Assembly: GCA_024696945.1 (NCBI GenBank)
Contig: JAILGF010000175.1
Location: forward strand, 1-35,272
DNA length: 35,272 nt
Direction: 5' to 3'
Source of the DNA: Lachnospiraceae bacterium
GTDB taxonomy: Bacteria > Bacillota > Clostridia > Lachnospirales > Lachnospiraceae
The notes below the pieces were generated by a model. The model saw nothing but the letters and a program-made list of their open reading frames with translations. It made no database searches and had not been told where the DNA came from. The translations under genes and the position numbers were made by a program. Positions within the stretch are counted from its first letter, which is position 1. Every line of letters begins with the position of its first letter. This document shows, in pieces, positions 366 to 30,000 of the stretch.

Positions 366-3300
366 TTATTTCAAAGTTCGCGGAAGATGCTTACTATCCA
401 AGAGTTTTTCTGTGGAGATTTCATCAGGAATATCTTTGATCTCTTGATATATACTCTCCCAATCTTCAAGAGGGAAAGGATATTCGGAAATATTATATAA
501 TGCTCTGTCATAAAGTCTTAATATTAGTTGGGTAAAACTACTTATTGGCATATCGGCATCTCTGAGGTTATAGTATTCTTGATACAGGTTTTGCATGGGG
601 TTTTTCCCTAGACTCTTAGCTTTATCAGAATTAAAAAGTATATATTTGGAACGAACTGATAAATATAAAAGAGGAAAAAGTGACTCCCAAAGGTTGTTAA
701 AAATACTTTTAAGTTTTAGGTCATTAGTGTCCCATTTAGTAATGATGTATTCATAAAACACTTTTTTATTATTCGGGGATATGGTTAAAAATCCGTTAAT
801 ATCAGTAATGAGATCATCTGATAAAACGCCATATCTATTTACGTCTATGAGACTATTGCGAAAATCATCGATTAGACGAGAAGGGTTGACAATATAATTT
901 GTTTCAGGAAACTCGTTTAGTATGGTTTCTCTAAAGTTGGTCGGGATTCCATCATTGTAAATTATTCTAACATTATGTAATTTGCGCTCTTTTAAATCTT
1001 TTAGGACAGATGAAAGAGGATTTGGTTCATCATTTTTCTTAACCTGTATTGTTAAGACATCGTATAATCCGCGCTGATTAATCCCCTGAACAATATAGCA
1101 AAAGTAATTTACAATGTTTTTTATAGAATAATCGGGTTGTTCGATGATGTTCCTCGGGAAAACAGAAAATGGAATTCTGTTGATAAAAATAATGGGGTAA
1201 TTATCTAGTAATTCTCGATGCATCCATTTTTCCATATGACGTTTATCAAACGATAATGCTAAGACTTCATCAAGGAAATCAGTTGCACCATCAAATATGT
1301 ATTTCTGAGGGAAAATAAATTTTTCTTGTCCGACTAATTCCCCATTTATAAAATTTCCTTCATATATTTTATTATTAGATAATACCTTCCCTTTTCCATT
1401 GGGTCGACCATCTTTCCATTCGCCAATATATTTTGTTTTATCAGGAAGAGTTTTTTGCCCGAATCCATCTGGCTGACCATTTTTAAGCTCACCTTCATAT
1501 ACACCGTCATCATAGTTGGAGTAGGTATATTTTCCTGGACCATTTATCATACCATCAATAAAAATACCTTCGAGCACATCGCCACTGGGGAACGAACACC
1601 TGCCTTTTCCATTGGGTCGACCATCTTTCCAATAACCATTATAAACAGTGCCATCATTTAAATAACATATGCCCAGTCCATTTGGGATATTATTTTTTAG
1701 CTCACCTTTATATATTGCACCATTGGAGTAAGCCAGTTTTTCTTTGCCGTTAACCTTGTTTCTGGCAACATGGCCGTTTAACTTTTTTACATCACTTAAA
1801 AAGCCTTTATATTGGGTATTGTTTTCAGGTAAATCTGTCAGGTATTTTACAGCCCCAAGAACAAGCCAATCAAATTGGTTAGCACTATATAATTCCCATA
1901 ATTGACATTTGTCTAAAATTTTATCCATTTTCTCTTTAAAGTCTTTAATACCATAGTGCGCTAGCCATTTATTTTTATTATTTTCAATTTCATTGACATA
2001 TTTGAAATAATATAGAAGAATAAGTGCTCTTCTCAAACTGTCATTTTCCCAATAATTCTCAGGATTACTCTCAAACTTATTAAAGAATTGTCTATATAAA
2101 AATTCTTTTAATACTGAATTACCAAGGGTAGACTCCCCGTATGAGGTTTTATTACTGGAACGTATTTCTTGATATGTTAGCATTCCGTAACCATTTCTTT
2201 TACCGTCGTTCCATTCTCCTATATATTCTGTTTTATCATCAAATTTTTGTATCCCAAATCCGGCTTTTTTGTAGTTTTTTTCCACACCCCAATAACTTAA
2301 ATCAGGATCATAGGTGTAGGTTGCATTGTTGATTTCGACAAGAGTATCTCTTAGCCATAGTCCTTCATACATTTGGTTGTTATATATTCGTTTTCCAAAC
2401 CCGATTCTCTCGTTTCGCTCCCAGTATCCCCTATAGACGGCACCATTTTTATAAACCATTGTACCGTAACCTTGCTTCATGTTATCTTGCCAATGGCCAG
2501 TATATTTTGATTCATCGGGATAGTCCATTGTACCTTTGCCATTTTTAACACCGTTTTGCAAACCACCAGTATATTTCGATCCATCGGGATAGTCTATCGT
2601 ACCTTTACCATTATTTGTGCCTTTTACGAGGGTGCCTTTATCTTTACATTCTGAAGTATATATGTCGGGAAAGACTTTAATAGTATAGTCTCCTTCCCTT
2701 GCAATGATATTATTGTCTATCCAAACTCCCTCATAAATAGCATGATTTGGAAGGATTAGTTTGCCTGGACCTAAGCGTATTCCATGGTACCATTCGCCAA
2801 TAAATATAGTTCCGTTGGAATAACACAGTCTACCATGGCCATGCATTTCGTCATTCATCCAGTATCCTATATATTCTTTTTCACAGAATGCAATTCCGGG
2901 AATCATATGAAAGATATATTTACCAAATCCATTTTTCTTATTGTTTTTGATACCGCCTATATATTTCGATCCGTCCGAATATTTTTTCTTTTGAGTATTT
3001 TGCTCTATTTTTATTTTCGAATTCCAGTAATCGTTTTCCCAAAAGCTGACATCTACATCACCATCTGAATATATCAACAGAAACATGCCATTTTTAAGGT
3101 CATTTTCCCATTCGCCTTCATAAATGGTTCCGTCTGAGAGTTTTAATATTCCGTGACCATGCTTTAGATTGTTTTTCCATTGGCCTACATAAGTTTCGCC
3201 ACTATAATTAGTGTATGTTCCAGTTCCATTCCTTTTGCCATCCATTAACTCGCCTTCGTAGCGGTCCCCATTTGAATATTTACGATGATATCTCTTGAGA

Positions 3301-4532
3301 ATACCATTAGTATCTGATGAGGAAGGTGTCACCAAAACATCGTTTTCCCATATCCCTTTATATACTTCATCACCGTCATCTGTATGGAGTATAAAGATGC
3401 CATACCCATTCTTTTTTCCAGCCTTTACTTCTCCTTCATATATATTGCCGTTATTATATTTATAGCAGGCAAAGCCATTTTCCATGTCGTTTTCCCATTC
3501 CCCGATATAAGAATATCGCGGGATTTCTGGATCTAGTGTTAAGATTGGCAGCCATGTAGCTAATATCTGACTTTCGGATATAACCTGATTTGTTTGATTA
3601 TTTGGAGAGGTAAGAAAATCGGAAAGACTCTTAAGTTCATCTAAGTTATCAGAGATTTTTGACAATTGCTTTGACAAAAAGTCCACCATATCTAAAATGT
3701 TAGTATTCTCTAATAACATATTCTTTGCTGTATTTAAAAGGCTAGAAGAGCCGGAGTATTTTTTTAGGGCATCTTTTAGTTTGTTGCTATAAATTGTTTT
3801 ACTTTTTTCTGTATTTATTTTCTTTTTTAATAGTGTTAAAAGAAGAGAATTTTTTAGTTCATAGTAGTTCCTTAATGCAGTTTTACTTATAGAAGTAAAG
3901 TTCTGTTTATTGGGCAGTAAGAAATCTTTGAAATAACATTCGACATTTTTGGATTTAAAGTTGCTGTAGTTATTGATTAGGAATTCGGTTGTAACTGAAG
4001 AGTCAGATGGGATAGGTTCTGAGGAAGTATCATGAGCAGGAGAACTATCCGCATATCTCTTTAAAAGTTTATCAGCTTCATCCCATGAAAGATGATTATC
4101 CAAACAGTATTCATATATAGCATCTTCATAACACCTAATATTTAAGCATCCAAAACCAGCCTTCCCTAAAAAAACATTTGCTGAATCTTTATTAAGAGTT
4201 AGGGCAAAACAAAGTTTGATAATGGTTTTCCGACTTCTAATTGATTTTGTTTCGCCATTAAACCATCTTCTGACGGTCATAGAACTAATACCAGAATTTT
4301 CAGGTAATAGTTTATATAAACAGTTTATGAAGTTGTTGTTAGGAGCATTAATGTCTAATGGAAGATTTGCTTTTATCATAGTTTCCTTAAGAAGTTCTGG
4401 TAACTGTTTAAACTTGCTTTCATCTTCCAAATCTTCAAGTATTTTTTCAGGACTTGTTGCTAGACCATTGCTGAATTCTTTGAGAAGGTTAGTTGCGTTT
4501 CTGGTTGTAGGTCCTTGTGCTATTTCTGGCAT
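366..4532 (-). CDS. HTH-MORN-repeat protein with a derived IS256-like transposase domain
   Basis: The product has 1388 residues. Residues about 60-165 contain a helix-turn-helix-like segment (MTVRRWFNGETKS) followed by a helical stretch seen after XRE domains in Lachnospiraceae. Residues about 340-1070 hold some 20 MORN units (YEGEWENDLKNG type), interrupted by a non-MORN helical insert of about 140 residues. Residues about 1073-1375 match the IS256/mutator transposase order: LDNYPIIFINRI, then RIIYNDG, a late W-rich region, and ALYNISEYPFPLEDW at the end. By this alignment the first catalytic Asp is Asn1118, the second is kept (Asp1194), and the Glu position is Ala1305, so it should not transpose. 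The start at 4532 follows AAAGGGGG at 9-bp spacing. A longer TTG-initiated reading from 4592 is excluded because that TTG is the -35 element. MORN repeats often bind lipid or scaffold proteins; the role here is unknown. Confidence 0.85.
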   Translation of the reverse strand: MPEIAQGPTTRNATNLLKEFSNGLATSPEKILEDLEDESKFKQLPELLKETMIKANLPLDINAPNNNFINCLYKLLPENSGISSMTVRRWFNGETKSIRSRKTIIKLCFALTLNKDSANVFLGKAGFGCLNIRCYEDAIYEYCLDNHLSWDEADKLLKRYADSSPAHDTSSEPIPSDSSVTTEFLINNYSNFKSKNVECYFKDFLLPNKQNFTSISKTALRNYYELKNSLLLTLLKKKINTEKSKTIYSNKLKDALKKYSGSSSLLNTAKNMLLENTNILDMVDFLSKQLSKISDNLDELKSLSDFLTSPNNQTNQVISESQILATWLPILTLDPEIPRYSYIGEWENDMENGFACYKYNNGNIYEGEVKAGKKNGYGIFILHTDDGDEVYKGIWENDVLVTPSSSDTNGILKRYHRKYSNGDRYEGELMDGKRNGTGTYTNYSGETYVGQWKNNLKHGHGILKLSDGTIYEGEWENDLKNGMFLLIYSDGDVDVSFWENDYWNSKIKIEQNTQKKKYSDGSKYIGGIKNNKKNGFGKYIFHMIPGIAFCEKEYIGYWMNDEMHGHGRLCYSNGTIFIGEWYHGIRLGPGKLILPNHAIYEGVWIDNNIIAREGDYTIKVFPDIYTSECKDKGTLVKGTNNGKGTIDYPDGSKYTGGLQNGVKNGKGTMDYPDESKYTGHWQDNMKQGYGTMVYKNGAVYRGYWERNERIGFGKRIYNNQMYEGLWLRDTLVEINNATYTYDPDLSYWGVEKNYKKAGFGIQKFDDKTEYIGEWNDGKRNGYGMLTYQEIRSSNKTSYGESTLGNSVLKEFLYRQFFNKFESNPENYWENDSLRRALILLYYFKYVNEIENNKNKWLAHYGIKDFKEKMDKILDKCQLWELYSANQFDWLVLGAVKYLTDLPENNTQYKGFLSDVKKLNGHVARNKVNGKEKLAYSNGAIYKGELKNNIPNGLGICYLNDGTVYNGYWKDGRPNGKGRCSFPSGDVLEGIFIDGMINGPGKYTYSNYDDGVYEGELKNGQPDGFGQKTLPDKTKYIGEWKDGRPNGKGKVLSNNKIYEGNFINGELVGQEKFIFPQKYIFDGATDFLDEVLALSFDKRHMEKWMHRELLDNYPIIFINRIPFSVFPRNIIEQPDYSIKNIVNYFCYIVQGINQRGLYDVLTIQVKKNDEPNPLSSVLKDLKERKLHNVRIIYNDGIPTNFRETILNEFPETNYIVNPSRLIDDFRNSLIDVNRYGVLSDDLITDINGFLTISPNNKKVFYEYIITKWDTNDLKLKSIFNNLWESLFPLLYLSVRSKYILFNSDKAKSLGKNPMQNLYQEYYNLRDADMPISSFTQLILRLYDRALYNISEYPFPLEDWESIYQEIKDIPDEISTEKLLDSKHLPRTLK

Positions 4533-4563
4533 TTGATTATACCCCCTTTCAAGTTCTAATATT

Positions 4564-4592
4564 ATTTTAGTAAATAACGTATGCCTTGTCAA
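4564..4592 (-). promoter_or_regulatory. Sigma-A promoter of the MORN-repeat gene
   Basis: On the minus strand TTGACA (4592-4587) is followed after exactly 17 bp by TAAAAT (4569-4564). The start codon at 4532 lies about 30 bp downstream. This near-consensus promoter fixes the gene start at 4532. Confidence 0.8.
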
Positions 4593-4676
4593 CAGAACAG
4601 AAGTTCTTATTTAGGCTTGTTTAGTAAATTTGTTACAAGGCCATTTGTTGATAGACTCGGCTTAAGAAGTTAAAAC

Positions 4677-4720
4677 AATTACATTCAGTTTCCAAGCTGT
4701 TTTTTTAGATATGATATTAT
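4677..4720 (+). promoter_or_regulatory. Shared-box promoter 1, ahead of the YbjN-like/Lon operon
   Basis: The 17-mer AATTACATTCAGTTTCC (4677-4693) is followed after 21 bp by TATTAT (4715-4720), preceded by ATGA in extended -10 style. It aligns without gaps to boxes ahead of four other genes (10503, 12141, 15170, 16001). The transcript would have a leader of roughly 180 nt before the ATG at 4906. Confidence 0.6.
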
Positions 4721-4794
4721 TTTCAAAACAACAAAGGAAAAGGAAGAATCTGATTTTATTTGGGAGCTAACAATCATATAGGAAGGAGGCTGGA

Positions 4795-4833
4795 ATGGAG
4801 TATTTATTACTACGAATAATAATGAAAGGTTAG
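4795..4833 (+). CDS. Possible 12-residue leader peptide
   Basis: ATG at 4795 follows a strong GGAAGGAGG (4781-4789) at 5-bp spacing and opens a 12-codon frame (MEYLLLRIIMKG) ending in TAG. It lies inside the long leader of the 4906 gene. The ribosome site is better than many in the window, so translation is plausible, but there is no other support. Confidence 0.3.
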   Translation: MEYLLLRIIMKG

Positions 4834-4905
4834 TTGATATTCAGATTCGCTTACTACAAAGTAGAATAATTTGAGTAATCTTTTAAATTCAATGGAGGTG
4901 ACAAA

Positions 4906-5898
4906 ATGAACAATAACAGACCTGGTTTTACAGAATCAGACGAAAAATGTAGTGAATTTTTTGGAGAAAGCTATCCCGGACAGCTGGATAAGGTCCGCGA
5001 AGACCTAGAAAAGAAACTTGAAAGCATCAAAAGAGAACTTAAAGAGATGTCTCCAGAGGTTAAGCTGATAAAAGAGGAGATTATAAAGGTTTTAATTGAA
5101 AAAAGGATAAAATTTACCTGTAATGAAGCAGATAATCCGAAAACATTATCATTATTATTTGAACCAGATAATAAACCGTATGGTATTGATGTAATTCTGC
5201 TTGGTAACAATATAGTAATAAGGATAGAATTTTCTTCCAGAGTGGAGGAACAGGCAATTGCACTTGTTTCTATGGCTAATGCCGAGATAAATGCTGGTGA
5301 GCCGTTTTCAAAGATATCCCTTAATTTTGAAAAGGGAGAGCTAGTCATAGAGTATTCATATATTTGTGAAAAGCCTGAGGATTTTAACGGAAACGCTTTC
5401 TGGAGATATCTGCTACATACTCTCGTTCTTGCTAATGAGGAATACTCCAGGCTGAAACGCATGGCTATAGGAATAGTCCCCAAAAAGGATCGCCCAAGGT
5501 ACAGAAGGCTACTGGAAGGGGCTCTTAAAGTTCTCAACTGGGATTTCACCGAAGAAGCTGTGTATGGAACAGCATCAATGGATTCAGAATCTGATGGAGA
5601 GAACTCGGAGATGGGGACAAACTCAGGGATGAACAGTGGAGACGAGGGTTTTTATGAAGTTGATGATGATACAATTGTTTTCCCGAGAGGTGGGTCTTCT
5701 TTAGGCCTTGGCAGGGACTTCCCTTCTTTTGGGGAGTGGATGAGAATGCAGGAGATACAGCAAGGCAAATCAGCTGCGGGAAACGATGATACAGATGGGA
5801 AATTGGAGGCTTTTTTAAACATGTTGGATGAAGATTGCTATGAAGACATAAACAATCAAGATTGCAATGAGGAAACCGGAGGTGAAAATGATGGATAA
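4906..5898 (+). CDS. YbjN-like cytoplasmic protein, first gene of the Lon operon
   Basis: The product has 330 residues and no signal peptide. Residues about 20-70 are charged and coiled-coil-like (repeated K/E heptads). Residues about 70-195 show an alternating strand/helix layout resembling the YbjN / type III chaperone-like fold (family resemblance only). Residues about 220-330 are acidic and low complexity, rich in Asp, Glu, Ser and Gly, probably disordered. GGAGGTG sits 5-6 bp before ATG at 4906. The stop at 5898 overlaps the start of the Lon-like gene, so the two are translationally coupled. A chaperone or adaptor that feeds or regulates the Lon-like protease would fit, but this is inference from position. 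Confidence 0.6.
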   Translation: MNNNRPGFTESDEKCSEFFGESYPGQLDKVREDLEKKLESIKRELKEMSPEVKLIKEEIIKVLIEKRIKFTCNEADNPKTLSLLFEPDNKPYGIDVILLGNNIVIRIEFSSRVEEQAIALVSMANAEINAGEPFSKISLNFEKGELVIEYSYICEKPEDFNGNAFWRYLLHTLVLANEEYSRLKRMAIGIVPKKDRPRYRRLLEGALKVLNWDFTEEAVYGTASMDSESDGENSEMGTNSGMNSGDEGFYEVDDDTIVFPRGGSSLGLGRDFPSFGEWMRMQEIQQGKSAAGNDDTDGKLEAFLNMLDEDCYEDINNQDCNEETGGENDG

Positions 5899-8800
5899 GT
5901 CGCTTTCCATAGAAAAGGCAAGAGAAATTATTAAAACCCAGTTTGGTTTGTTGAATGTTTCCGTTCCCGGCTTTACAAAATCAGAAGATAGGATTGGCTT
6001 AAACTATGAAGTTACCCCTAATGCCATCCTTAATGATCAGATATTTGAGATAACCGGTGAAATATGCCATTTAGATAAGAAGGAAAAAACCATATCTATC
6101 AGGGATAGAGACAACAATTTTTATATTGTGCTACCGACATCAGAGACTATATACAGTGATTCTCTCCTGGATAAAGGAGAAGGGAACAGTAAGATAAACG
6201 GAGCCACATTAAGCATTATAGGGCTAAAGGCGGAAAGCCCGAATGGGAACAGTGCAGTGTATCTTGCCATAACTATCATTCGGGAAGAAGAAAGATCTAT
6301 GTTTGATCAGATAAAAAGCCTCTATGGCAGAGCGATTGCGATCAGGAGATTCTATACATGGTTTAATGAGAAAAAGAGAGATAGTATCTGTATGGAATCC
6401 CAAGGGAAAAAATATCCGAAGTATGAATTCTCAAAAGATTTGGAATTTAATAGTCTCGAGGAACTTGCCTTAAAGTATTTTCTTACAAAAGATACCTACC
6501 CCTTGGAAACACAAAGAGCAGTTGAGTCCTATCTCCGTGATACCAATACATCAAAACAGAAAACAGAAAAAAAATTGAGGACACTGTTAAAAATCTCACC
6601 TGCTTATAAGGATAGAAATCATGTTACAAAAGAAGAATTACAAACATTCCTAGACGATAAATTATACGGGATGGAGGATGTAAAAGCACAGCTGATAGAC
6701 ATTCTTGTATCAAATGAAAGAGTGGGTAGGAGAGGGGGCGCTTTTCTTCTTGTAGGTTCGGATGAGGCGAGGATGGAGGCAATAATGCAAGCCATTGCGG
6801 AGGCCTGCGGGCTTCCGTATGCAGGAAAAGACCTTGGAGCATTATCTAATCCGCTAGAGATTGAAGGCCTCGATTCGAGTTATGAGTATAGTGATCTGGG
6901 TTGGCTGTTTGAGGTTTTTTCAGCCCATCAAACAAGTGAGATGGTAATCGGATTAAAAGGGATTGATGGAATCAACCGCCAGTCAAAAGAAGGGGATCCG
7001 TTTAAAGTGATTGCCAAGATATTAGAAGGAAACTTTGAGGATAAATTTTGCGGGGCCAGGGTTTGTACTTTAAACACTATATTTATCATGACTGCCAGCA
7101 GCGTTGAAAGAAGCATACCTGAAAACCTTTTAAAAAATTTCAATGCAGTAATCCATCTACCCGATTATAACACAGAAGATAAAAAGGTTATCGCTAATGA
7201 CCATATTATTCCCGAAATACTGAATATGTATCATCTTGAAGATAGCGGATTGGAATTCCCTGAAGATGTGCTTGATTATATAATCAAGAACTACTGTGAA
7301 GATCAGGGGACCTGCGACCTATACCATAATATAGAAAGAATTGTTCATCGCTTCATATCTGATTCCCATGAGGATGCACAGGGGTATATCACTATTGAAA
7401 AGGTAAAGTCTGTACTTGATCCTCTTATCAAGGAGACACCTGCACTTTTCTTTGCCAGGCACCGGGACCAGTATGATGAACCGGTAGCGGATGAAATTAA
7501 GCGGAGCCTTATGGAAGCAAAAAAGACGATGGGAGAATATTCAGATTCCTTCGCCAATGAGAAATGTCGGGAAAGGCTCGGATACCTGCTTGCCTGCAGA
7601 GATGAAGAAGGCGATTTCCAGGACAGTTTTGAGCCTGAGTCATTTTTTCAAACCTTGCATAAAAATATATTTGGCATGGAAAACGTGATTAAAGAGTTGA
7701 CGCTGCTTTATCATACTGCACATCTTCAAGGGACAGTACTGAACTCCAACATCGCCCTCTGCGGGGGTTACGGAACCGGGAAGACAACGCTTTCCCAAAA
7801 CGTAGCAAGGGCTATGGGATATCACTTCGAAAAAATCTCCCTTAATGGTATCTTGGACATTAGGGATCTGAGAGGTACTCCATCGACGATCGCAGGTAGT
7901 TGTCCGGGAAGGATCATTAAGGGTATCAAGAGGGCCGGATCACTAAAAACAATCTTTCTTCTTGATGAGATAGATAAGCTTAGACCTGATATGGCCATGA
8001 TACTTCTGGACCTGCTCGACCGCGAGTTTACTGACGAATTCGTGGGTGTCCCTGTTAAGTTCAAAAAGGCTATTTTTATAGCTACGGCAAATGATTGGGG
8101 TAATGTCCCTGCAGTAATAAGAGACAGATTCATCGTTGTAAATGTTGATGGTTACGACAGAGGAGAAAAATCCAAAATAGTGTCGGATTACATAATCCCA
8201 AGGATAGAAGAAAACTATGCTGCAAGTAGCGTGTCTGTTTCGATTGAAGAGTCTGCAAAAGAAGCACTGTTAAAATATTACTGCTACGGATTTGGAGTAA
8301 GAGACGCAGAGAAGGCAATGCAAAAGCTGGTTAGCTGTAAGCTGCTTGATCAGACAGGAAAAGATAATGCAACATGTGTACGGATCAGTGGATGTGATTT
8401 GAAGAAGTATCTTGGGGACAAACCTATTCCGAGAGGTAATTTCCCACAGGAAGAGAATCTGCCCGGAATAGCAAAAGCGCTGGCCGTAAGCAACAGCAAT
8501 CAGGGAAACACATTCGCTATAGAGACGGTTCTCATCGATGGAGAAGAGACTCTTGAAATGACTGGGCTTCCGAAGGAAACGACAACGGATTCGGTGAAGA
8601 TTGCGGTAACATGCATCAAAAAAATGTATCCAGGGTTATTAACGGGAAAGCAAATACACGTACATTTCGGGGAAGGCGGAGTGACTAAAGACGGTTCGTC
8701 AGCCGGAGTGGCACTTTTTATGAGCATCCTAAGTGCGGCAATCGATAAACCGCTTATGGTTAGTAAACCGTATGATATAGCTTACACTGGTGAGATATCT

Positions 8801-9007
8801 CTTGCGGGTGGTGTTTTTGCCGTTGGCGGAGTTATGGAAAAACTACAGGCCGCTGGGGATTCGGGATGTCGGAAGGTATTTATCCCAAGGCAGAATTATG
8901 AGCGCCTTGATAAGGAGAAACTGGATAAGCTACCTTGCGAAGTTATACCTGTTACAAATGTGGCCCAAGTGGTGGATGAGGTTTTCCCGGATATGGATAA
9001 GAAGTGA
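5891..9007 (+). CDS. Lon-like ATP-dependent protease with one dead and one active AAA module
   Basis: The product has 1038 residues. Residues about 255-520 resemble a Lon AAA+ module, but the Walker A place reads LLVGSDEARMEAI and lacks the GKT core, so it should not hydrolyse ATP. Residues about 590-860 form a second, intact AAA+ module: Walker A GGYGTGKTT (625-633), Walker B IFLLDEID (about 688-695), and sensor region IATAND. Residues about 870-1035 are the Lon (S16) protease domain: KDGSSAG with nucleophile Ser937, and GGVMEK with Lys984, giving an intact Ser-Lys dyad. No N-terminal Lon substrate domain was recognised. GGAGG (5878-5882) serves ATG at 5888 or 5891; 5891 has the better spacing. 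The start overlaps the upstream gene. It is unlike housekeeping LonA or LonB in having two AAA copies. Confidence 0.85.
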   Translation: MDKSLSIEKAREIIKTQFGLLNVSVPGFTKSEDRIGLNYEVTPNAILNDQIFEITGEICHLDKKEKTISIRDRDNNFYIVLPTSETIYSDSLLDKGEGNSKINGATLSIIGLKAESPNGNSAVYLAITIIREEERSMFDQIKSLYGRAIAIRRFYTWFNEKKRDSICMESQGKKYPKYEFSKDLEFNSLEELALKYFLTKDTYPLETQRAVESYLRDTNTSKQKTEKKLRTLLKISPAYKDRNHVTKEELQTFLDDKLYGMEDVKAQLIDILVSNERVGRRGGAFLLVGSDEARMEAIMQAIAEACGLPYAGKDLGALSNPLEIEGLDSSYEYSDLGWLFEVFSAHQTSEMVIGLKGIDGINRQSKEGDPFKVIAKILEGNFEDKFCGARVCTLNTIFIMTASSVERSIPENLLKNFNAVIHLPDYNTEDKKVIANDHIIPEILNMYHLEDSGLEFPEDVLDYIIKNYCEDQGTCDLYHNIERIVHRFISDSHEDAQGYITIEKVKSVLDPLIKETPALFFARHRDQYDEPVADEIKRSLMEAKKTMGEYSDSFANEKCRERLGYLLACRDEEGDFQDSFEPESFFQTLHKNIFGMENVIKELTLLYHTAHLQGTVLNSNIALCGGYGTGKTTLSQNVARAMGYHFEKISLNGILDIRDLRGTPSTIAGSCPGRIIKGIKRAGSLKTIFLLDEIDKLRPDMAMILLDLLDREFTDEFVGVPVKFKKAIFIATANDWGNVPAVIRDRFIVVNVDGYDRGEKSKIVSDYIIPRIEENYAASSVSVSIEESAKEALLKYYCYGFGVRDAEKAMQKLVSCKLLDQTGKDNATCVRISGCDLKKYLGDKPIPRGNFPQEENLPGIAKALAVSNSNQGNTFAIETVLIDGEETLEMTGLPKETTTDSVKIAVTCIKKMYPGLLTGKQIHVHFGEGGVTKDGSSAGVALFMSILSAAIDKPLMVSKPYDIAYTGEISLAGGVFAVGGVMEKLQAAGDSGCRKVFIPRQNYERLDKEKLDKLPCEVIPVTNVAQVVDEVFPDMDKK

Positions 9008-10590: not shown

Positions 10591-11994
10591 ATGAAGAACT
10601 GGGAAACAAAACTGGTCGTATGCATATTCGTAGTAGTTGCAACGATCGCGTCGTCGTTTGGAAGTTTTGGTGTAATGGCGAGAGAGTATCCTTCATCCGC
10701 AAATGAGGGAAGTGAAGGAACGGTGTCAGCAGCCTTAAGGGTACGTAACGGACCTGGATTGAATTACAAGCAGATAGGGCTTCTTAAGAAGAACTCGGTA
10801 GTAAGAATTGAAGGCGAAATAGTTGATGCGGACGGATATTATTGGAGTATGGCTCCTGAGTACTCGGGCTGGATCGCTATCGATTACCTGACCGGAATAA
10901 CGTATGTCCCTTCCGGCAGTTATTATATTGGATCGTATGTGACTATTCCGGATGGCGACTACAATATCCTTACAAACTATGGACTGTTTTTAGCGGCTAC
11001 GTCAGATAGTACGGATTTAAGAATCCATATTGATGCCAGGGAAGAGGATAAGACATTCCGCTTTATCAGACAGCCTGATAATTCCTATGTAATCGCATCA
11101 AAGGCGACAGGTCTTTGTATGGATCTTGGTGGCGATGTAGGTAATGGGACAAACGTTCTCATGAATACTCCTGATGGGACCAGATCCCAGAGATGGTTTA
11201 TCGGTCAGAATACATTGGGTAAGTATATCCTTGTCAATGCTCTTCGAGCTGACTGTACAATAGACATTCAGGATAGAAAAGATTCAACAGAAAATGCAAA
11301 TGTCCAGATTTGGGCATTTCATGGTGACAGTAATCAGACATTTGAGATCAGATCTATATTTGAGAATGGACCTTATACATTTGATTACATGGCAAGACAG
11401 GCTCTTGATATAATTGTAGATCGACTTGAAGGACGCTTCTTTACATATTCAGGTGAAGAATGTAGCGTTTGCAAGGGTAAGTTTGTAAAAGGTCATGGCT
11501 GCTGGAACTGCAGTAGTACACACATCCTGGAATCAAGTTGTACCTGGTATCATAATATGTTCCCTGAATTCAGCAATACGTCGGCTAGGCATTTCCCCAG
11601 GATTGCATATAAGATATCTAAAGGTTCAAACGGCTATACCGGCCAGTCGTGCTTCGGATTCGCTGCTTGGGCGCAGTACTGGGTATATAGTTATGTCCTT
11701 GGAGAACAGAACTTCACTGGCAGACCGTATTACGCTAAGGGCAAGCTTACTTATGACTTTTTTGTAGAAAACAATGTACGTGCCGGGGATGTGGTCAGAC
11801 GTGGGGACACACACAGCTTCATCGTTTATTCCTATAATAAGGACGGGTGTACCATAATAGATTCCAATGGTGGTGCTGACGGAAAGTTAAACTGTATGGT
11901 TGATATGCGTACTATAAAGTTTAACGGTGCTGATTGTGCCATCAGCCGTCCAAAGACAAGCGTTTCTGATACAGCAGATGCTTTGGTACAGTAG
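10591..11994 (+). CDS. Secreted SH3b / ricin-type lectin / papain-fold peptidase-like protein
   Basis: The product has 467 residues with an N-terminal signal peptide (residues 1-30, ending FGVMA). Residues about 43-105 form a bacterial SH3 domain (LRVRNGPGLNYKQIG). Residues about 119-256 resemble a ricin B-type lectin (SQRWFI and SNQTFEI, QxW-like). The C-terminal domain (about 265-455) has a Cys cluster C291, C294, C304, C307, then Cys354 (GQSCFGF), His408 (DTHSF) and Asp424/Asn426 (IDSNGG), the order of a CHAP/NlpC-like cysteine peptidase or amidase. It therefore probably acts on the cell wall or surface proteins outside the membrane. AAAGGAG precedes ATG at 10591. It is a paralogue of the 16229 gene and has its own shared-box promoter. 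Confidence 0.75.
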   Translation: MKNWETKLVVCIFVVVATIASSFGSFGVMAREYPSSANEGSEGTVSAALRVRNGPGLNYKQIGLLKKNSVVRIEGEIVDADGYYWSMAPEYSGWIAIDYLTGITYVPSGSYYIGSYVTIPDGDYNILTNYGLFLAATSDSTDLRIHIDAREEDKTFRFIRQPDNSYVIASKATGLCMDLGGDVGNGTNVLMNTPDGTRSQRWFIGQNTLGKYILVNALRADCTIDIQDRKDSTENANVQIWAFHGDSNQTFEIRSIFENGPYTFDYMARQALDIIVDRLEGRFFTYSGEECSVCKGKFVKGHGCWNCSSTHILESSCTWYHNMFPEFSNTSARHFPRIAYKISKGSNGYTGQSCFGFAAWAQYWVYSYVLGEQNFTGRPYYAKGKLTYDFFVENNVRAGDVVRRGDTHSFIVYSYNKDGCTIIDSNGGADGKLNCMVDMRTIKFNGADCAISRPKTSVSDTADALVQ

Positions 11995-16085: not shown

Positions 16086-16232
16086 ATGGTTCAGTTAAGA
16101 ATAGGAGAGGATAGTTTTTTAGAAGGCATCGAACCCCAATGGGGTAATGTACAAAGATCCTTTCCAAAAACATTGAAAAAGATGCTAAGTGTATACAATC
16201 AAAAGCCTAAGGGCAGGAAGGAAAAACTATGA
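16086..16232 (+). CDS. 48-residue protein coupled to the secreted peptidase
   Basis: The frame begins MVQLRIGEDSFLEG, contains one Trp and a basic C-terminus (KPKGRKEKL), and has no signal peptide. AAAGGAG lies 11 bp before ATG. The TGA overlaps the ATG of the secreted peptidase gene (ATGA, 16229-16232), so translation of the two is linked. Possible roles are a leader peptide that sets expression, or a cytoplasmic partner that keeps the peptidase inactive before export. Both are inference. Confidence 0.5.
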   Translation: MVQLRIGEDSFLEGIEPQWGNVQRSFPKTLKKMLSVYNQKPKGRKEKL

Positions 16233-17356
16233 AGAAAAGACTTATAAGCATCATGATGATTATCATGATAACAGCAGCCATTATCAGCCCGGTATCAACA
16301 AAAGCAGCAGAATATGCAACCGTTTCGGCAAATCTCAGAGTAAGGTCAGGTCCTGGTTTATCATACAAGCAGGTTGGCCTTATCTATAAGGGTACTTTTA
16401 TTGAAATTAGAGGTGATGTGACTATAGCCGATGGCTATAGCTGGATATATGTTCCGGACTACGGCGGATACTGTGCAATGGAATTTATGGATGGATTTAT
16501 CACCGACGGAGATGGAAATGAAGAGACTCCAGACATAACTTGTGAAACTCTTGAAAACAAGATTTGGAGAATTGGCGATGTTGTAACCCTTTCTCAAGTT
16601 GCTAGCGCTATAAAGATTCACAATTATTCTGATGATTATTCAATTTCATTAGTTAATACAGATATTGCTTCAGTATTCGATTGGTATCCGGAAGGGTTTG
16701 AATACAGATATTGCGCCAGAGCAGTCGGGATAGCAAGTATTACCATCAAGGTAACTGATAATACTGGTTCAAAGGCACCTTTTGAGAAAACATTTAAGGT
16801 AACAGTGTATCCTAATACTATGGAAGAAGCTCTTGAAGTTATCTGCGAGCGTTTAGAGGGCAAGTTCTTGACTGTAAATGGTTGCGAATGTGCCAAAGGG
16901 ACTAAAGGTCATAAATCCTGTAGTAATTGTAACCAGCTTTCTGTTGTAGAAAAGGCCACATGGCTGCATCAGCTTTTCCCCGAGATAACGTTCTCCAAGT
17001 CACAGTTCCAGCAAGGAGGATCCGGTTACACGTGTTGGATGGGCTCCCAAATCATTCAGTATATAGCTGTAGAACTCTTAAATGGGGGGTATGCTAAGCT
17101 CACATATAATAGAGCTCCTAAGAGTAATTCCGTATTTAAATTTACAAAGAATGATATCTCAAAATATGCTCAGGTAGGAGATCATTTAAGGCTTAATGAT
17201 AGTCACAGCGTAATTTTGTTGGGTATAAATGATGATAATACTGTAAAAGTTATAGATGTTAATAGTCATCAGGACGGTACCAACACGAGGGTCGCCATAT
17301 ATAACAGAAAGTTAAACGGAGTAAAGATGAAGATCTACAGGACGACTGTAAGATAA
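16229..17356 (+). CDS. Secreted SH3b / Ig-like / papain-fold peptidase-like protein
   Basis: The product has 375 residues with a signal peptide (residues 1-27, cut near STKAA). Residues about 30-90 are an SH3b domain closely similar to that of the 10591 protein (LRVRSGPGLSYKQVG). Residues about 105-195 are strand-rich and Ig-like, replacing the ricin domain of the paralogue. The C-terminal domain repeats the paralogue's layout: Cys219, Cys221, Cys231, Cys234, then Cys269 (GYTCWMG), His326 (DSHSV) and Asp343/Asn345 (IDVNS). A cysteine peptidase or amidase on the cell surface is likely. AGGAAGG lies upstream, and the gene is coupled to the 48-residue ORF. Confidence 0.75.
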   Translation: MKKRLISIMMIIMITAAIISPVSTKAAEYATVSANLRVRSGPGLSYKQVGLIYKGTFIEIRGDVTIADGYSWIYVPDYGGYCAMEFMDGFITDGDGNEETPDITCETLENKIWRIGDVVTLSQVASAIKIHNYSDDYSISLVNTDIASVFDWYPEGFEYRYCARAVGIASITIKVTDNTGSKAPFEKTFKVTVYPNTMEEALEVICERLEGKFLTVNGCECAKGTKGHKSCSNCNQLSVVEKATWLHQLFPEITFSKSQFQQGGSGYTCWMGSQIIQYIAVELLNGGYAKLTYNRAPKSNSVFKFTKNDISKYAQVGDHLRLNDSHSVILLGINDDNTVKVIDVNSHQDGTNTRVAIYNRKLNGVKMKIYRTTVR

Positions 17357-24980: not shown

Positions 24981-25829
24981 GTGGTTATTACAATGCAAGA
25001 CTACGATGAGATTAGAAGGCGTTTTAATTCCGGCGAGAGCCAAAGGCATATCGCCAAATGTATGGGCATTTCCAGAAATACCGTGAAAAAGTACTGTGAA
25101 GGAAATGCGGTGCCCTGGGAGCGTAAAACTCCTGTCAGGACCTCAAATGTGCTGACCGAAGAAACGGTCAGTTTCATAAAACAATGCCTAGCTGAGGATT
25201 CATCCGAGCATCTCAGGAAACAGATCCATACAGCAAAACGGATCTATGACAGGCTTGTGTCCGAGGCCGGATTCTCCGGAGGAGAATCTACAGTAAGGGC
25301 AAAAGTACACGAATTAAAGGAAACATCTCCCCGGGCATTCATCCCTCTCCAGTTCGAGATGGGCGAGGCCATGCAGGTCGACTGGGGCGAGGCAACTGCT
25401 TACCTGTCTGGTCAAAAAACAAAGATAAATATCTTCTGTGCCAGGCTGTGCTACAGCTGCAGGCCTTTTGTTTTTGCCTACCATAAGCAGAACGAAGAAA
25501 GCTTCCTGGATGCTTTTGTGCGCATATTTGAAGGTATGGGAGGCGTCCCCAGGAAAGTCATCTTTGACAACGGGCGTGTAGCCGTAAAGGACGGTTTCGG
25601 TAAACATGCCAAGGCTCAGGCCGGATACACACAGCTGTCTGCCCATTACAGTTTCAGTGCGGTATTCTGTAATCCTGTCGAAGGACATGAAAAAGGCCTT
25701 GTCGAAGGGCTAGTAGGCTGGGCACGAAGGAATGTAATGGTCCCTGTTCCAAAGGTTCCTGACATATCCCTGCTGAACAAACTCCTTTCAGACCGCTGCA
25801 AGAAATACGAGGGAGGTGAACAACTATGA
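24981..25829 (+). pseudogene. istA: IS21 transposase IstA, C-terminally deleted
   Basis: The frame has 282 residues: an N-terminal helix-turn-helix (ESQRHIAKCMGISRNTVKKY) and an intact-looking DDE core (QVDWGEA, IFDNGR, GHEKGLVEGLVGWARRN). Family members run to about 400-500 residues. Here the sequence passes from LLSDRCKKYE straight to the istB ribosome site (GGGAGGTG), so roughly 150-200 C-terminal residues are missing by an internal deletion. The GTG start at 24981 follows GGAGGG at 8-bp spacing. It overlaps istB by 4 bp. Confidence 0.8.
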
Positions 25830-26578
25830 GTAATCCTGTGATTGATGAACAGATACGCATACTGGCAAAACAGCTGAAACTTCCGACCTTTGTCAACTAC
25901 ACAGAAATAACCCGTCAGGCAGCGCCGGATTCAAGTATGGGAGACTTACTGCTCCTGCTTATGAAATCTGAACTCGAACAACGTCAGGAGAATCAGAACC
26001 ACAAAAGGTTAAAGCAGGCCGGATTCCCTTACACAAAAACTCTCGATGAATTAGACCTTGGCAGGTATAACGGCGAGATAAGCACTCTTTTTGTCAACGA
26101 GCTTGCCAGCTGTAAATTCATAAAGGAGCACCGCAACATAACGATGCTGGGCAATCCTGGAAGAGGCAAAACACACATGGCCATCGGCCTATGACTGAAG
26201 GCATGCTCCCTGGGTATGACCGTCCTGTTTAAGAATGCGGCATCATTATCTACGGAACTTGCCGAAGTAAGGGACAACTATTCTCTTGGCAGGTTGGAAA
26301 AGCGTATCCAAAAGGCCGACCTGCTGATACTTGATGAAATGGGCTATGTAAGCTTTGACAGGTATCAGTCAGAACTGCTTTTCAAGATAATCGCAGACCG
26401 CAGTGAACGCGGCAGTATCATCATAACAACAAACTTACCATTCTCGGAGTGGACAACGCTGTTTGAGAACACTGCTATGGTAGCGGCAATGATTGACCGA
26501 CTAACATTCCAATCATATGTACTTGATATGAACGGTGAATCATACCGCTTATCAGTTATCAAGAAAAACAGGAAATAA
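25826..26578 (+). pseudogene. istB: IS21 helper ATPase IstB with in-frame stop
   Basis: The reading frame carries Walker A (GNPGRGKTH), then TGA at 26192-26194, and continues in the same frame with Walker B (LLILDEMGYV) and the family C-terminus (IITTNLPFSEW, DRLTFQSYVLDMNG). Apart from the one stop the protein would be 250 residues, the family's normal length. The stop falls just after Walker A, so the ATPase should be inactive. Confidence 0.85.
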
Positions 26579-28708: not shown

Positions 28709-29922
28709 TTACTTAACGCACATCCCACATTTCCGGTATCCCGCTGCTTCTGCATCTTCCGCAGAGTCAAAGTATACCCTGTTCTTTTCCAGCGGTAAAG
28801 ACATGCAGTTTTCAGTATGATATACTTTCGAATTAACATTCCCGATTATATTGCCATGTTCTACCTTAAGCCTATCTTCTGCATCCCAATCGATAATCTG
28901 CTTGCTACTCCACTTAAGGGTCTTCCCGTTCCCCTTTATGGTTACAGTTCCTTTCAAATCAGTCCTTAGAACCTTATACTTAAGGTATTAAGGCGTCGGA
29001 TAACATTATCGTTAGGATGCCCATATGCATTATTTCTGCCTGCGCTTATCAAAGCATATTTAGCCCCGACATTCTTTAAGAAAAGTAACGGATTGGTGTA
29101 ATCACTCCCGTGGTGGGCGACCTTAAGCACATTTGCCTTGATATCTGCTCCACTTTCCATCAGCTTATTCAGCACTGGAGCTGACGCATCCCCAGTGAAA
29201 AGGAAGGTGTTTTTATAGTATTTCAGCTTCATAATGATGCTTGAATCATTGGTCCCTTCGCCCAGATCGGCGCCAAGGATATCAATATTGCATCCCGTCC
29301 CAAGACTGTAAGTATCACCAGTATGTACATAAACAGTATTTACATGTTCCCGGTCAATGGCGTTCATCAGCTTGTTGTATTCCGTTGAGTTTCCGGGAGT
29401 TACAGGCATAAGGACAGTTTTAACCCCATAATCCTGCACTAACAGCTGTGCCGCACCCATATGGTCAGTGTCCATGTGGGATACGATAAGAGTATCTACG
29501 CTTGTGACACCAAAGTAGTCCAGCTGCTTCTTCAGATACTCATAATACTTCTTTTCTCCAGTATCCAGCACGATATTCTTACCGTTAACTCTTATCAAGA
29601 AGGCATCGCCCTGTCCTATATCCAGCATCGTAACCTTTATCCCGGTCTTCTTGACCTTAATGGAAAATTTATGGGATACACCATCGTTTTCCGTATAGGT
29701 ACCTGTAGTTTTACCAGGAGCTATCCCCGTGATCACGCCATCCTTTACAGATGCTATGCTACCAGATGCTACGGTGATCTTCGGTTTTCCGGCTATCTCA
29801 TAGCTTTCGCCTACCCCGAGCACAAGCTTTTTATCAGGATAACCGGAAGCCTTTAGGGGTACAGAAAACAAAGAAAGGCTGAATAATGCTATGAGCAGGC
29901 AACACAGAACTTTTCTTCTCAT
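28709..29922 (-). pseudogene. Secreted ComEC-like metallo-beta-lactamase protein, frameshifted
   Basis: From 29922 the frame gives a signal peptide (KVLCCLLIALFSLSLFSV), an Ig-like linker, and a metallo-beta-lactamase domain (SHMDTDHMGA, LFTGDA, VAHHGSDYTN) ending too early at TAA after NTLSIRF. In another frame the sequence carries on with KVLRTDLKGTVTIKGNG and an Ada-like metal-binding tail (NSKVYHTENC ... RKCGMC) to 28709. One added A in the AT-AAGG context near 28975 restores a continuous protein of about 400 residues. Intact relatives join both domains. The first part keeps all its metal ligands, so it may still act alone. AAAGG lies upstream of ATG 29922; ATG 29940 is the alternative start. 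Confidence 0.75.
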
Positions 29923-30000
29923 AACATCACAGCCTTTCATCTTGGTAAGCCTTTTTCAGTAATCATTTATATGATAACTAAATAAAATGAATTCTAGTTT

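What the first reader, a model, noticed from the sequence alone, without database searches (positions are those of the whole stretch)
366..4532. MORN-repeat protein fused to an inactivated IS256-like transposase domain
The last 315 residues follow the IS256/mutator transposase order from LDNYPIIFINRI to ALYNISEYPFPLEDW, with two of three predicted catalytic residues replaced (Asn1118, Ala1305; Asp1194 kept) and the Cys/His motif lost. A domesticated transposase behind some 20 MORN repeats and an N-terminal HTH would be a new architecture, perhaps a DNA- or membrane-tethered regulator.
Basis: partly seen in the sequence, partly recalled or inferred. Interest (0 to 1): 0.85.

Follow-up and report, generated by a model that had tools for sequence, protein, structure and literature searches.

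The report
Dead transposase fused to MORN repeats
A gut-type bacterium carries one very long protein in which a protein of a kinase-linked family is split by MORN repeats and ends in a transposase domain that has lost its cutting parts, so a jumping-gene enzyme seems to have been reused as a building block; what it does is still unknown.

Summary
The minus-strand ORF 4532-366 encodes an intact 1388-residue protein. Its last ~290 residues are homologous to the catalytic domain of IS256/Mutator transposases: Pfam Transposase_mut above its gathering score, full-domain alignment to an IS256 transposase in the same genome (E 6e-18), best PDB fold match ISCth4 transposase (E 4e-13). Two of three catalytic acids are gone (N1118; Q1314 or K1306 by alignment; D1194 kept), the C/DxxH motif is R1219/D1222, and the transposase's N-terminal dimerisation and DNA-binding domains are missing. 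The domain is acidic, unlike most relatives.

A 13-repeat MORN array splits it; about 6 more repeats lead into the transposase domain. The N-terminal HTH could not be confirmed. Among the genome matches listed, no other IS256 domain lay in a genuine fusion of this kind.

Most likely this is a domesticated, non-transposing transposase domain used as an interaction module in a kinase/TIR/STAND-type signalling protein. The anatomy is strong. The function is inferred, and the case rests on one metagenome-assembled contig without known orthologues.

The parts
366..4532 (-). whole ORF, 1388 residues, intact
3753..4532 (-). residues 1-260, N-terminal half of a ~430-residue Lachnospiraceae family often near kinase-STAND genes; predicted helical, layout resembles an Xre HTH by eye but unconfirmed
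   Evidence: hhalign of residues 1-340 against 15 family members E 1e-18, aligned part 25-232; blastp; AlphaFold2 all-helical, mean pLDDT 66; no HTH match
2163..3509 (-). MORN array 1, residues 342-790, 13 repeat matches
1782..2135 (-). residues ~800-917, C-terminal part of the same backbone family, separated from its N-terminal half by MORN array 1
   Evidence: hhalign E 4.9e-8 to family columns 319-417, score 56.6 against a best of 27.7 in 200 shuffles; blastp best E 6e-8
1365..1775 (-). MORN array 2, residues 920-1056, 6 repeat matches (one weak, 1.7 bits)
435..1301 (-). residues 1078-1366, catalytic (RNase H-like plus helical insertion) domain of an IS256/Mutator transposase, inactivated
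1179..1181 (-). N1118, place of the first catalytic Asp (ISCth4 D175)
   Evidence: PMC7780238 passages
951..953 (-). D1194, second catalytic Asp, kept
867..878 (-). R1219 and D1222 in place of the Cys and His of the C/DxxH motif
591..593 (-). Q1314, place of the catalytic Glu in the MAFFT alignments (K1306 in the phmmer alignment)

Best explanation
A transposase catalytic domain has been captured and kept as a non-catalytic module at the end of a large signalling-type protein. SHOWN: the ORF is intact; the C-terminal domain descends from an IS256/Mutator transposase catalytic domain; it lacks two of three catalytic acids, the C/DxxH motif and the transposase's N-terminal dimerisation and end-binding domains; the rest of the protein is a family protein, often near Ser/Thr kinase-STAND genes, split by one MORN array and followed by a second. 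INFERRED: it cannot transpose or cut DNA. The MORN arrays act as rigid binding stalks; of 10 long MORN proteins scanned from this bacterial family, 7 are joined to TIR, protein-kinase or STAND-type domains. The backbone couples to kinase-STAND signalling or regulates the divergent operon from 4906. The dead transposase domain works as a protein-binding or oligomerisation surface rather than as a DNA-cutting or transposon-end-binding one. My confidence is about 0.9 for the anatomy and for capture without transposition, and about 0.4 for the signalling-scaffold role.
For: Homology and fold. Lost residues against 30 of 30, 28 of 30, 30 of 30 and 29 of 30 in relatives. ISCth4 residue roles and N-terminal domains: PMC7780238 passages. 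Acidic domain (pI 5.3 for residues 1078-1388, net -7; 5.7 and net -3 for 1099-1366) while 33 of 36 transposase rows have pI above 7.5; the exceptions are L078 7.2, L084 (a fragment) 6.6 and the genome's own L002 6.5. Constraint: neutral drift to 28% identity gave on average 11 stops and 0 of 200 runs without a stop. Split backbone. Kinase association: 14 of 17 neighbouring genes tested carry a protein kinase domain (8 of 10, 6 of 7); 12 of the 17 are divergent. I picked these neighbours for length, which favours kinase-STAND genes. MORN context: 7 of 10 scanned (TIR_2 4, Pkinase 2, DUF4062-AAA-TPR 1), also picked for length. One composition through the gene: third-position GC 0.26-0.33 in all five parts against 0.36-0.41 in the two divergent genes.
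Against: No orthologue was found, so selection on the fused form cannot be measured, and the divergence may partly predate the fusion. One MAG contig (genome 86% complete), no reads. No kinase match in the 16 other window ORFs given to Pfam; the genome's kinase-STAND-type gene on contig C159 is cut at the contig edge. The backbone gives no shared Pfam family and no convincing PDB match, only a weak PHROGs family of unknown function (E 3.6e-5). The AlphaFold2 model was made with transposase rows in its alignment, so its fold is not independent of the homology. In a tree the domain sits on an extreme branch (about 10 changes per column), which also fits relaxed constraint. The genome's own active-looking IS256 is itself slightly acidic (pI 6.5), so the acidity argument is soft.
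Confidence: 0.6

Rival explanations
1. Regulator reading: the N-terminal region is an Xre-type DNA-binding domain that binds the 373-bp divergent promoter region (4533-4905) and controls the 330-aa protein/Lon-like AAA operon; MORN and the dead transposase domain set oligomeric state or add DNA contacts, as in the plant FHY3/FAR1 factors.
For: Divergent arrangement with 4906-5898 and 5867-9007; 12 of 17 tested family neighbours are also divergent; predicted helices and a T-V-x-x-W-F-x-G segment resemble an Xre HTH by eye; FHY3/FAR1 are Mutator-derived regulators whose transposase domain is needed for activity (PMC6000157 passages).
Against: No HTH family match in 21 members, no confident fold match; only short imperfect repeats between 4500 and 4960; transposase domain acidic and without its DNA-binding domains.
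Confidence: 0.3
2. Integrated decoy: the dead transposase domain is bait in an immune-like sensor; it co-assembles with, or is targeted like, active IS256 transposases or their partners and reports mobile-element activity to the kinase/STAND arm.
For: Catalytic fold kept while the active site is lost; backbone family near kinase-STAND genes; MORN proteins of the same bacterial family joined to TIR/kinase/STAND-type domains; an IS256 transposase gene in the same genome.
Against: The dimerisation domain that would most simply mediate co-assembly (residues 1-56 of ISCth4) is missing; no kinase or STAND partner seen in the window; no functional data.
Confidence: 0.1
3. Evolutionary junk: an IS256 fragment fused by chance at the end of a MORN gene, translated but without function and decaying.
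For: Extreme branch length; no orthologues found.
Against: About 28% identity with the whole domain still in frame; 0 of 200 neutral runs without a stop; pLDDT about 90 in the RNase H-like strands.
Confidence: 0.15
4. Assembly chimera of two genomes or contigs in the MAG.
For: MAG origin, single contig, no reads.
Against: One continuous 1388-codon frame; similar codon-position GC in all parts; the only other match to the domain in this genome is 29% identical, so there is no near-identical copy to misjoin with.
Confidence: 0.05

Closest known systems
ISCth4 / IS256-family transposases (PDB 6xg8; PMC7780238)
   Same: catalytic domain homology over residues 1078-1366, best PDB sequence and fold match, second Asp kept
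   Different: first Asp, Glu and C/DxxH lost; [quoted passage not shown] acidic; fused to about 1077 residues of other domains
FHY3/FAR1 (FRS) factors of plants, Mutator-derived
   Same: works-like comparison only: a Mutator-type transposase domain, most likely without transposase activity, inside a regulator (PMC6000157 passages)
   Different: plant proteins with zinc-finger DNA-binding domain and SWIM; here bacterial, MORN, no confirmed DNA-binding domain
TIR-MORN, kinase-MORN and MORN-DUF4062-AAA-TPR proteins of Lachnospiraceae (L154, L155, L157, L158, L161, L163)
   Same: MORN repeats joined to a non-MORN domain in the same bacterial family
   Different: none of the 16 MORN proteins checked shows the backbone family or the transposase domain by profile comparison
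~430-residue unnamed family near kinase-STAND genes (L114-L143)
   Same: both halves of the backbone
   Different: no member seen lies in a frame long enough for the MORN arrays and the transposase domain; frames 122-533 residues

Membership tests
IS256 family transposase | RNase H-like catalytic domain of the Mutator/IS256 type | tested here: met
   Pfam above gathering score
IS256 family transposase | DDE catalytic triad | tested here: not met
   N1118, D1194, Q1314 or K1306
IS256 family transposase | C/DxxH motif in the helical insertion | tested here: not met
   R1219, D1222; relatives Cys 30 of 30, His 29 of 30
IS256 family transposase | N-terminal dimerisation, DNA-binding and HTH domains | tested here: not met
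   matches to the same-genome transposase begin at residue 1078, near the end of the transposase HTH; domain limits from PMC7780238. A few blastp alignments run further up into MORN array 2 (from 1010 for three rows; 3 of 32 rows), which I take as chance extension
IS256 family transposase | NCBIfam equivalog cut-off (150 bits) | tested here: not met
   34.1 and 37.1 bits
IS256 family transposase | terminal inverted repeats around the gene | not tested
   no search was made for them
MORN repeat protein | tandem 23-residue MORN repeats | tested here: met
Xre/HTH regulator | recognisable HTH domain | tested here: inconclusive
   no HTH match in 21 members; no PDB profile match below E 0.48; Foldseek best E 2.9, with an Xre-type protein (C.EcoT38IS) only at E 5.0; low-confidence model
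kinase-STAND-associated ~430-residue family | sequence homology of both halves | tested here: met
   hhalign E 1e-18 and 4.9e-8; score 56.6 against a best of 27.7 in 200 shuffles for the C part
kinase-STAND-associated ~430-residue family | kinase-STAND gene close by | tested here: inconclusive
   no kinase match in the 16 other window ORFs given to Pfam, but the contig ends 365 bases past the stop; a kinase-STAND-type gene lies cut at the start of contig C159
FHY3/FAR1-like transposase-derived regulator | binds DNA and regulates transcription | not testable with these tools
   needs binding and expression experiments

The most novel reading that the evidence does not exclude
A bacterial 'integrated decoy': an immune-like kinase/STAND-linked sensor whose bait is a dead IS256 transposase domain on MORN stalks, so that a host protein detects mobile-element activity through a captured copy of the element's own enzyme.
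Probability: 0.1. Interest if true: 0.9.

Novelty: new variant of a known kind. Interest (0 to 1): 0.6.

Why it matters
Transposase capture as a regulator is known in plants (PMC6000157 passages) and reported for animals (search listing). In prokaryotes, the review whose passages I read (PMC8987985) has its transposase passages on CRISPR components and does not contain the terms IS256 or DDE. A dead IS256 catalytic domain held inside a large multidomain protein would be a bacterial counterpart of FHY3/FAR1, or of integrated decoys in plant immune receptors (the last recalled, not looked up). It also draws attention to an unnamed protein family near kinase-STAND genes in Lachnospiraceae, and to MORN arrays as parts of TIR/kinase/STAND-type proteins there.

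Tried and rejected
Close or full-length relatives: none confirmed in viral contigs or in genome contigs by exact peptides; no plasmid record (22 matched, 20 listed) covers 80% of the protein, and the 2 phage records match only the transposase part. Genomes: 24 of the genus, 195 relatives, 397 of the family, 391 of the class; the sets overlap, and searches scored at most 5 candidates per genome, so a fused copy could be missed. In those four calls every other listed IS256 match lay in an open frame of at most 732 residues. The 732-residue frame (G464) is a transposase half joined over an ambiguous codon (X) to what looks by eye like an integrase. The 575-residue frame (G135, L020) looks like an IS256 element in frame with an upstream coding piece and keeps its DDE residues by eye.

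MORN-only explanation: rejected, since the C-terminal domain matches a transposase profile by hhalign (E 4e-14), while none of 16 other Lachnospiraceae MORN proteins matches it or the backbone profile (best E 0.046). Link to the kinase-STAND-type gene on C159: could not be made. No Rfam match, no tRNA. PADLOC: no match for the protein. Intergenic repeats and promoter scan: nothing decisive. Tree: domain on an extreme branch, origin inside IS256 not resolved; its row was entered twice by oversight.

Literature, only as far as these searches: MORN repeat with transposase and domesticated 0 papers; MORN repeat, transposase and fusion 4 papers, listing seen, passages of 2 read, neither on such a protein; IS256 with domesticated, transposase and bacteria 21 papers, 15 listed, listing only; protein kinase, NB-ARC, Lachnospiraceae and helix-turn-helix 0; MORN repeats with TIR domain and bacterial 0. 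In PMC7159879 the term counts for MORN, Lachnospir and transposase were 0.
Full report
WHAT IS THERE. The window is the whole of contig C199 of a MAG (3.9 Mb, 232 contigs, 86% complete). The gene lies on the minus strand, 4532 to 366, 1388 codons without a stop.

TRANSPOSASE DOMAIN. Pfam reports MORN (E 1.1e-70) and Transposase_mut (24.2 bits, gathering score 21); NCBIfam reports IS256 at 34-37 bits, far below its equivalog cut-off of 150. Residues 1048-1388 match an IS256 transposase elsewhere in the same genome, 29% identity over almost the whole domain, E 6e-18, and ISCth4 transposase 6xg8 at E 8e-10. An AlphaFold2 model with 30 IS256 transposases from viral contigs in its alignment has mean pLDDT 76, about 90 in the RNase H-like strands and lower in the helical insertion. 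Its best PDB match is ISCth4 (E 4.3e-13, TM 0.58, rmsd 5.1), next the P element (2e-5). The model is not independent of the homology, because the alignment holds transposases; the sequence matches are.

WHAT WAS LOST. ISCth4 uses D175, D241, E348 and C262/H265, preceded by a dimerisation domain (1-56), a DNA-binding domain (56-108) and an HTH (108-165) (PMC7780238, passages). In 30 relatives the columns are Asp 30, Asp 30, Glu 28, Cys 30, His 29; in six more, from this genome and from relatives of the same family or order, all five are kept, 6 of 6 each. Here they are N1118, D1194, Q1314 (MAFFT; K1306 by phmmer), R1219, D1222. If the MAFFT placement is right, both lost acids became their amides. 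The match to the same-genome transposase starts at residue 1078, so the three N-terminal transposase domains are replaced by MORN repeats; a few blastp alignments run further up, into MORN array 2 (three rows, 3 of 32), which I take as chance. The domain is acidic (pI 5.3 for residues 1078-1388), while 33 of 36 transposase rows exceed pI 7.5; the genome's own IS256 (6.5) is one of the exceptions.

NOT SIMPLY DECAYING. A neutral drift simulation from the genome's own IS256 gene to 28% identity left on average 11 stops, and 0 of 200 runs had none. This is a simple model, and part of the divergence may have happened before capture. In a tree of 38 rows the domain has an extreme branch. The gene's parts share third-position GC of 0.26-0.33.

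A SPLIT BACKBONE. Residues 1-340 match a family of Lachnospiraceae proteins of about 370-510 residues (27 of 397 family genomes including this one at E <= 1e-3; 11 loci in genome contigs). The C-terminal end of these proteins matches residues ~800-917, between the two MORN arrays: blastp at E <= 0.01 in 3 of the 29 loci other than the window's own and in 6 of the 11 genome-contig loci, best E 6e-8. Profile comparison with 15 members gives E 1e-18 for the N part and 4.9e-8 for the C part. Against 200 shuffles the C part scores 56.6 versus a best of 27.7, and stretches wholly within the MORN arrays or the transposase domain do not match. So MORN array 1 (13 repeats, 342-790) sits inside the backbone and array 2 (6 repeats, 920-1056) links it to the transposase domain.

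NEIGHBOURS OF THE BACKBONE FAMILY. I tested one long neighbouring gene in 10 of 20 loci and in 7 of 11 loci, picked for length, which favours kinase-STAND genes. A protein kinase domain was found in 8 of 10 and 6 of 7, most of them with a STAND-type P-loop or TPR match, some below Pfam's cut-offs; the others were an SPFH/zinc-ribbon protein, an FHA protein and a TPR protein. For L135 and L136 the gene tested is not the immediate neighbour. Twelve of the 17 are divergent. In the window the divergent genes are a 330-residue protein and an AAA-Lon_C protein; no kinase matched among the 16 other window ORFs given to Pfam.

IS THE N-TERMINUS AN HTH? By eye and by its predicted helices it resembles an Xre HTH, but no HTH family matched any of 21 members, a profile search of PDB gave nothing below E 0.48 and Foldseek nothing below E 2.9. 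PHROGs gives one weak family of unknown function (E 3.6e-5). I treat it as open.

MORN CONTEXT. MORN matches occur in 22 of 397 family genomes at E <= 1e-5 and 5 of 24 genus genomes at E <= 1e-3. Of 18 regions fetched, mostly for long frames, 16 proteins passed my MORN screen; of 10 of these given to Pfam, 4 have TIR_2, 2 a protein kinase, 1 DUF4062-AAA-TPR and 3 only MORN. None of the 16 shows the backbone or the transposase profile.

RARITY. IS256 matches are common: 24 of 195 relatives, 3 of 24 genus genomes, 57 of 397 family genomes, 51 of 391 class genomes, each count including this genome. Among the listed matches only this one lies in a genuine long fusion; the 732-residue frame is an artefact. 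At most 5 candidates per genome were scored.

MECHANISM. Shown: anatomy and loss of catalytic parts. Inferred: no transposition; the domain serves as an interaction surface in a large MORN scaffold related to the kinase/TIR/STAND-linked proteins of this bacterial family. The regulator reading needs a real DNA-binding N-terminus. The decoy reading is the boldest one not excluded.

VERDICT. Observation confirmed, interpretation partly supported and extended. It is a new domain architecture as far as searched, but a single case without orthologues or function, hence interest 0.6.

Noticed in passing
L114-L143: An unnamed ~430-residue protein family, with no Pfam family shared by more than one of 21 members, lies near Ser/Thr kinase-STAND/TPR genes in Lachnospiraceae: 14 of 17 tested long neighbours carry a protein kinase domain.
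   Followed up: partly
L154, L155, L157, L158, L161, L163: TIR-MORN, kinase-MORN and MORN-DUF4062-AAA-TPR fusion proteins in Lachnospiraceae; L154 has two TIR-MORN genes in tandem.
   Followed up: partly
window 4906-9007: Divergent pair: a 330-residue acidic-tailed protein and a 1046-residue AAA protein with Lon_C protease domain; PADLOC BrxL matches its C-terminal part at E 1.3e-9. Only 1 of 23 other genus genomes has a match at E <= 1e-10, a partial one.
   Followed up: partly
window 24981-26578: Three ORFs like IS21 istA (HTH_7, and rve below its cut-off) and pieces of istB (by eye); probably a broken element.
   Followed up: no
L152 1-2165 (G000:C159): A kinase-STAND-type gene of this genome is cut by the contig start; its partner could not be seen.
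   Followed up: partly
window 10591-11994 and 16229-17356: Secreted-looking proteins; the first has ricin-type lectin repeats and a sub-threshold SH3 match; the second was not scanned, and their C-terminal halves look alike by eye.
   Followed up: no
window 28966-29940: Secreted-looking metallo-beta-lactamase-fold protein.
   Followed up: no
L020 (G135:C43): IS256 transposase with DDE residues kept by eye, read in frame with an upstream coding piece, 575-residue frame.
   Followed up: no
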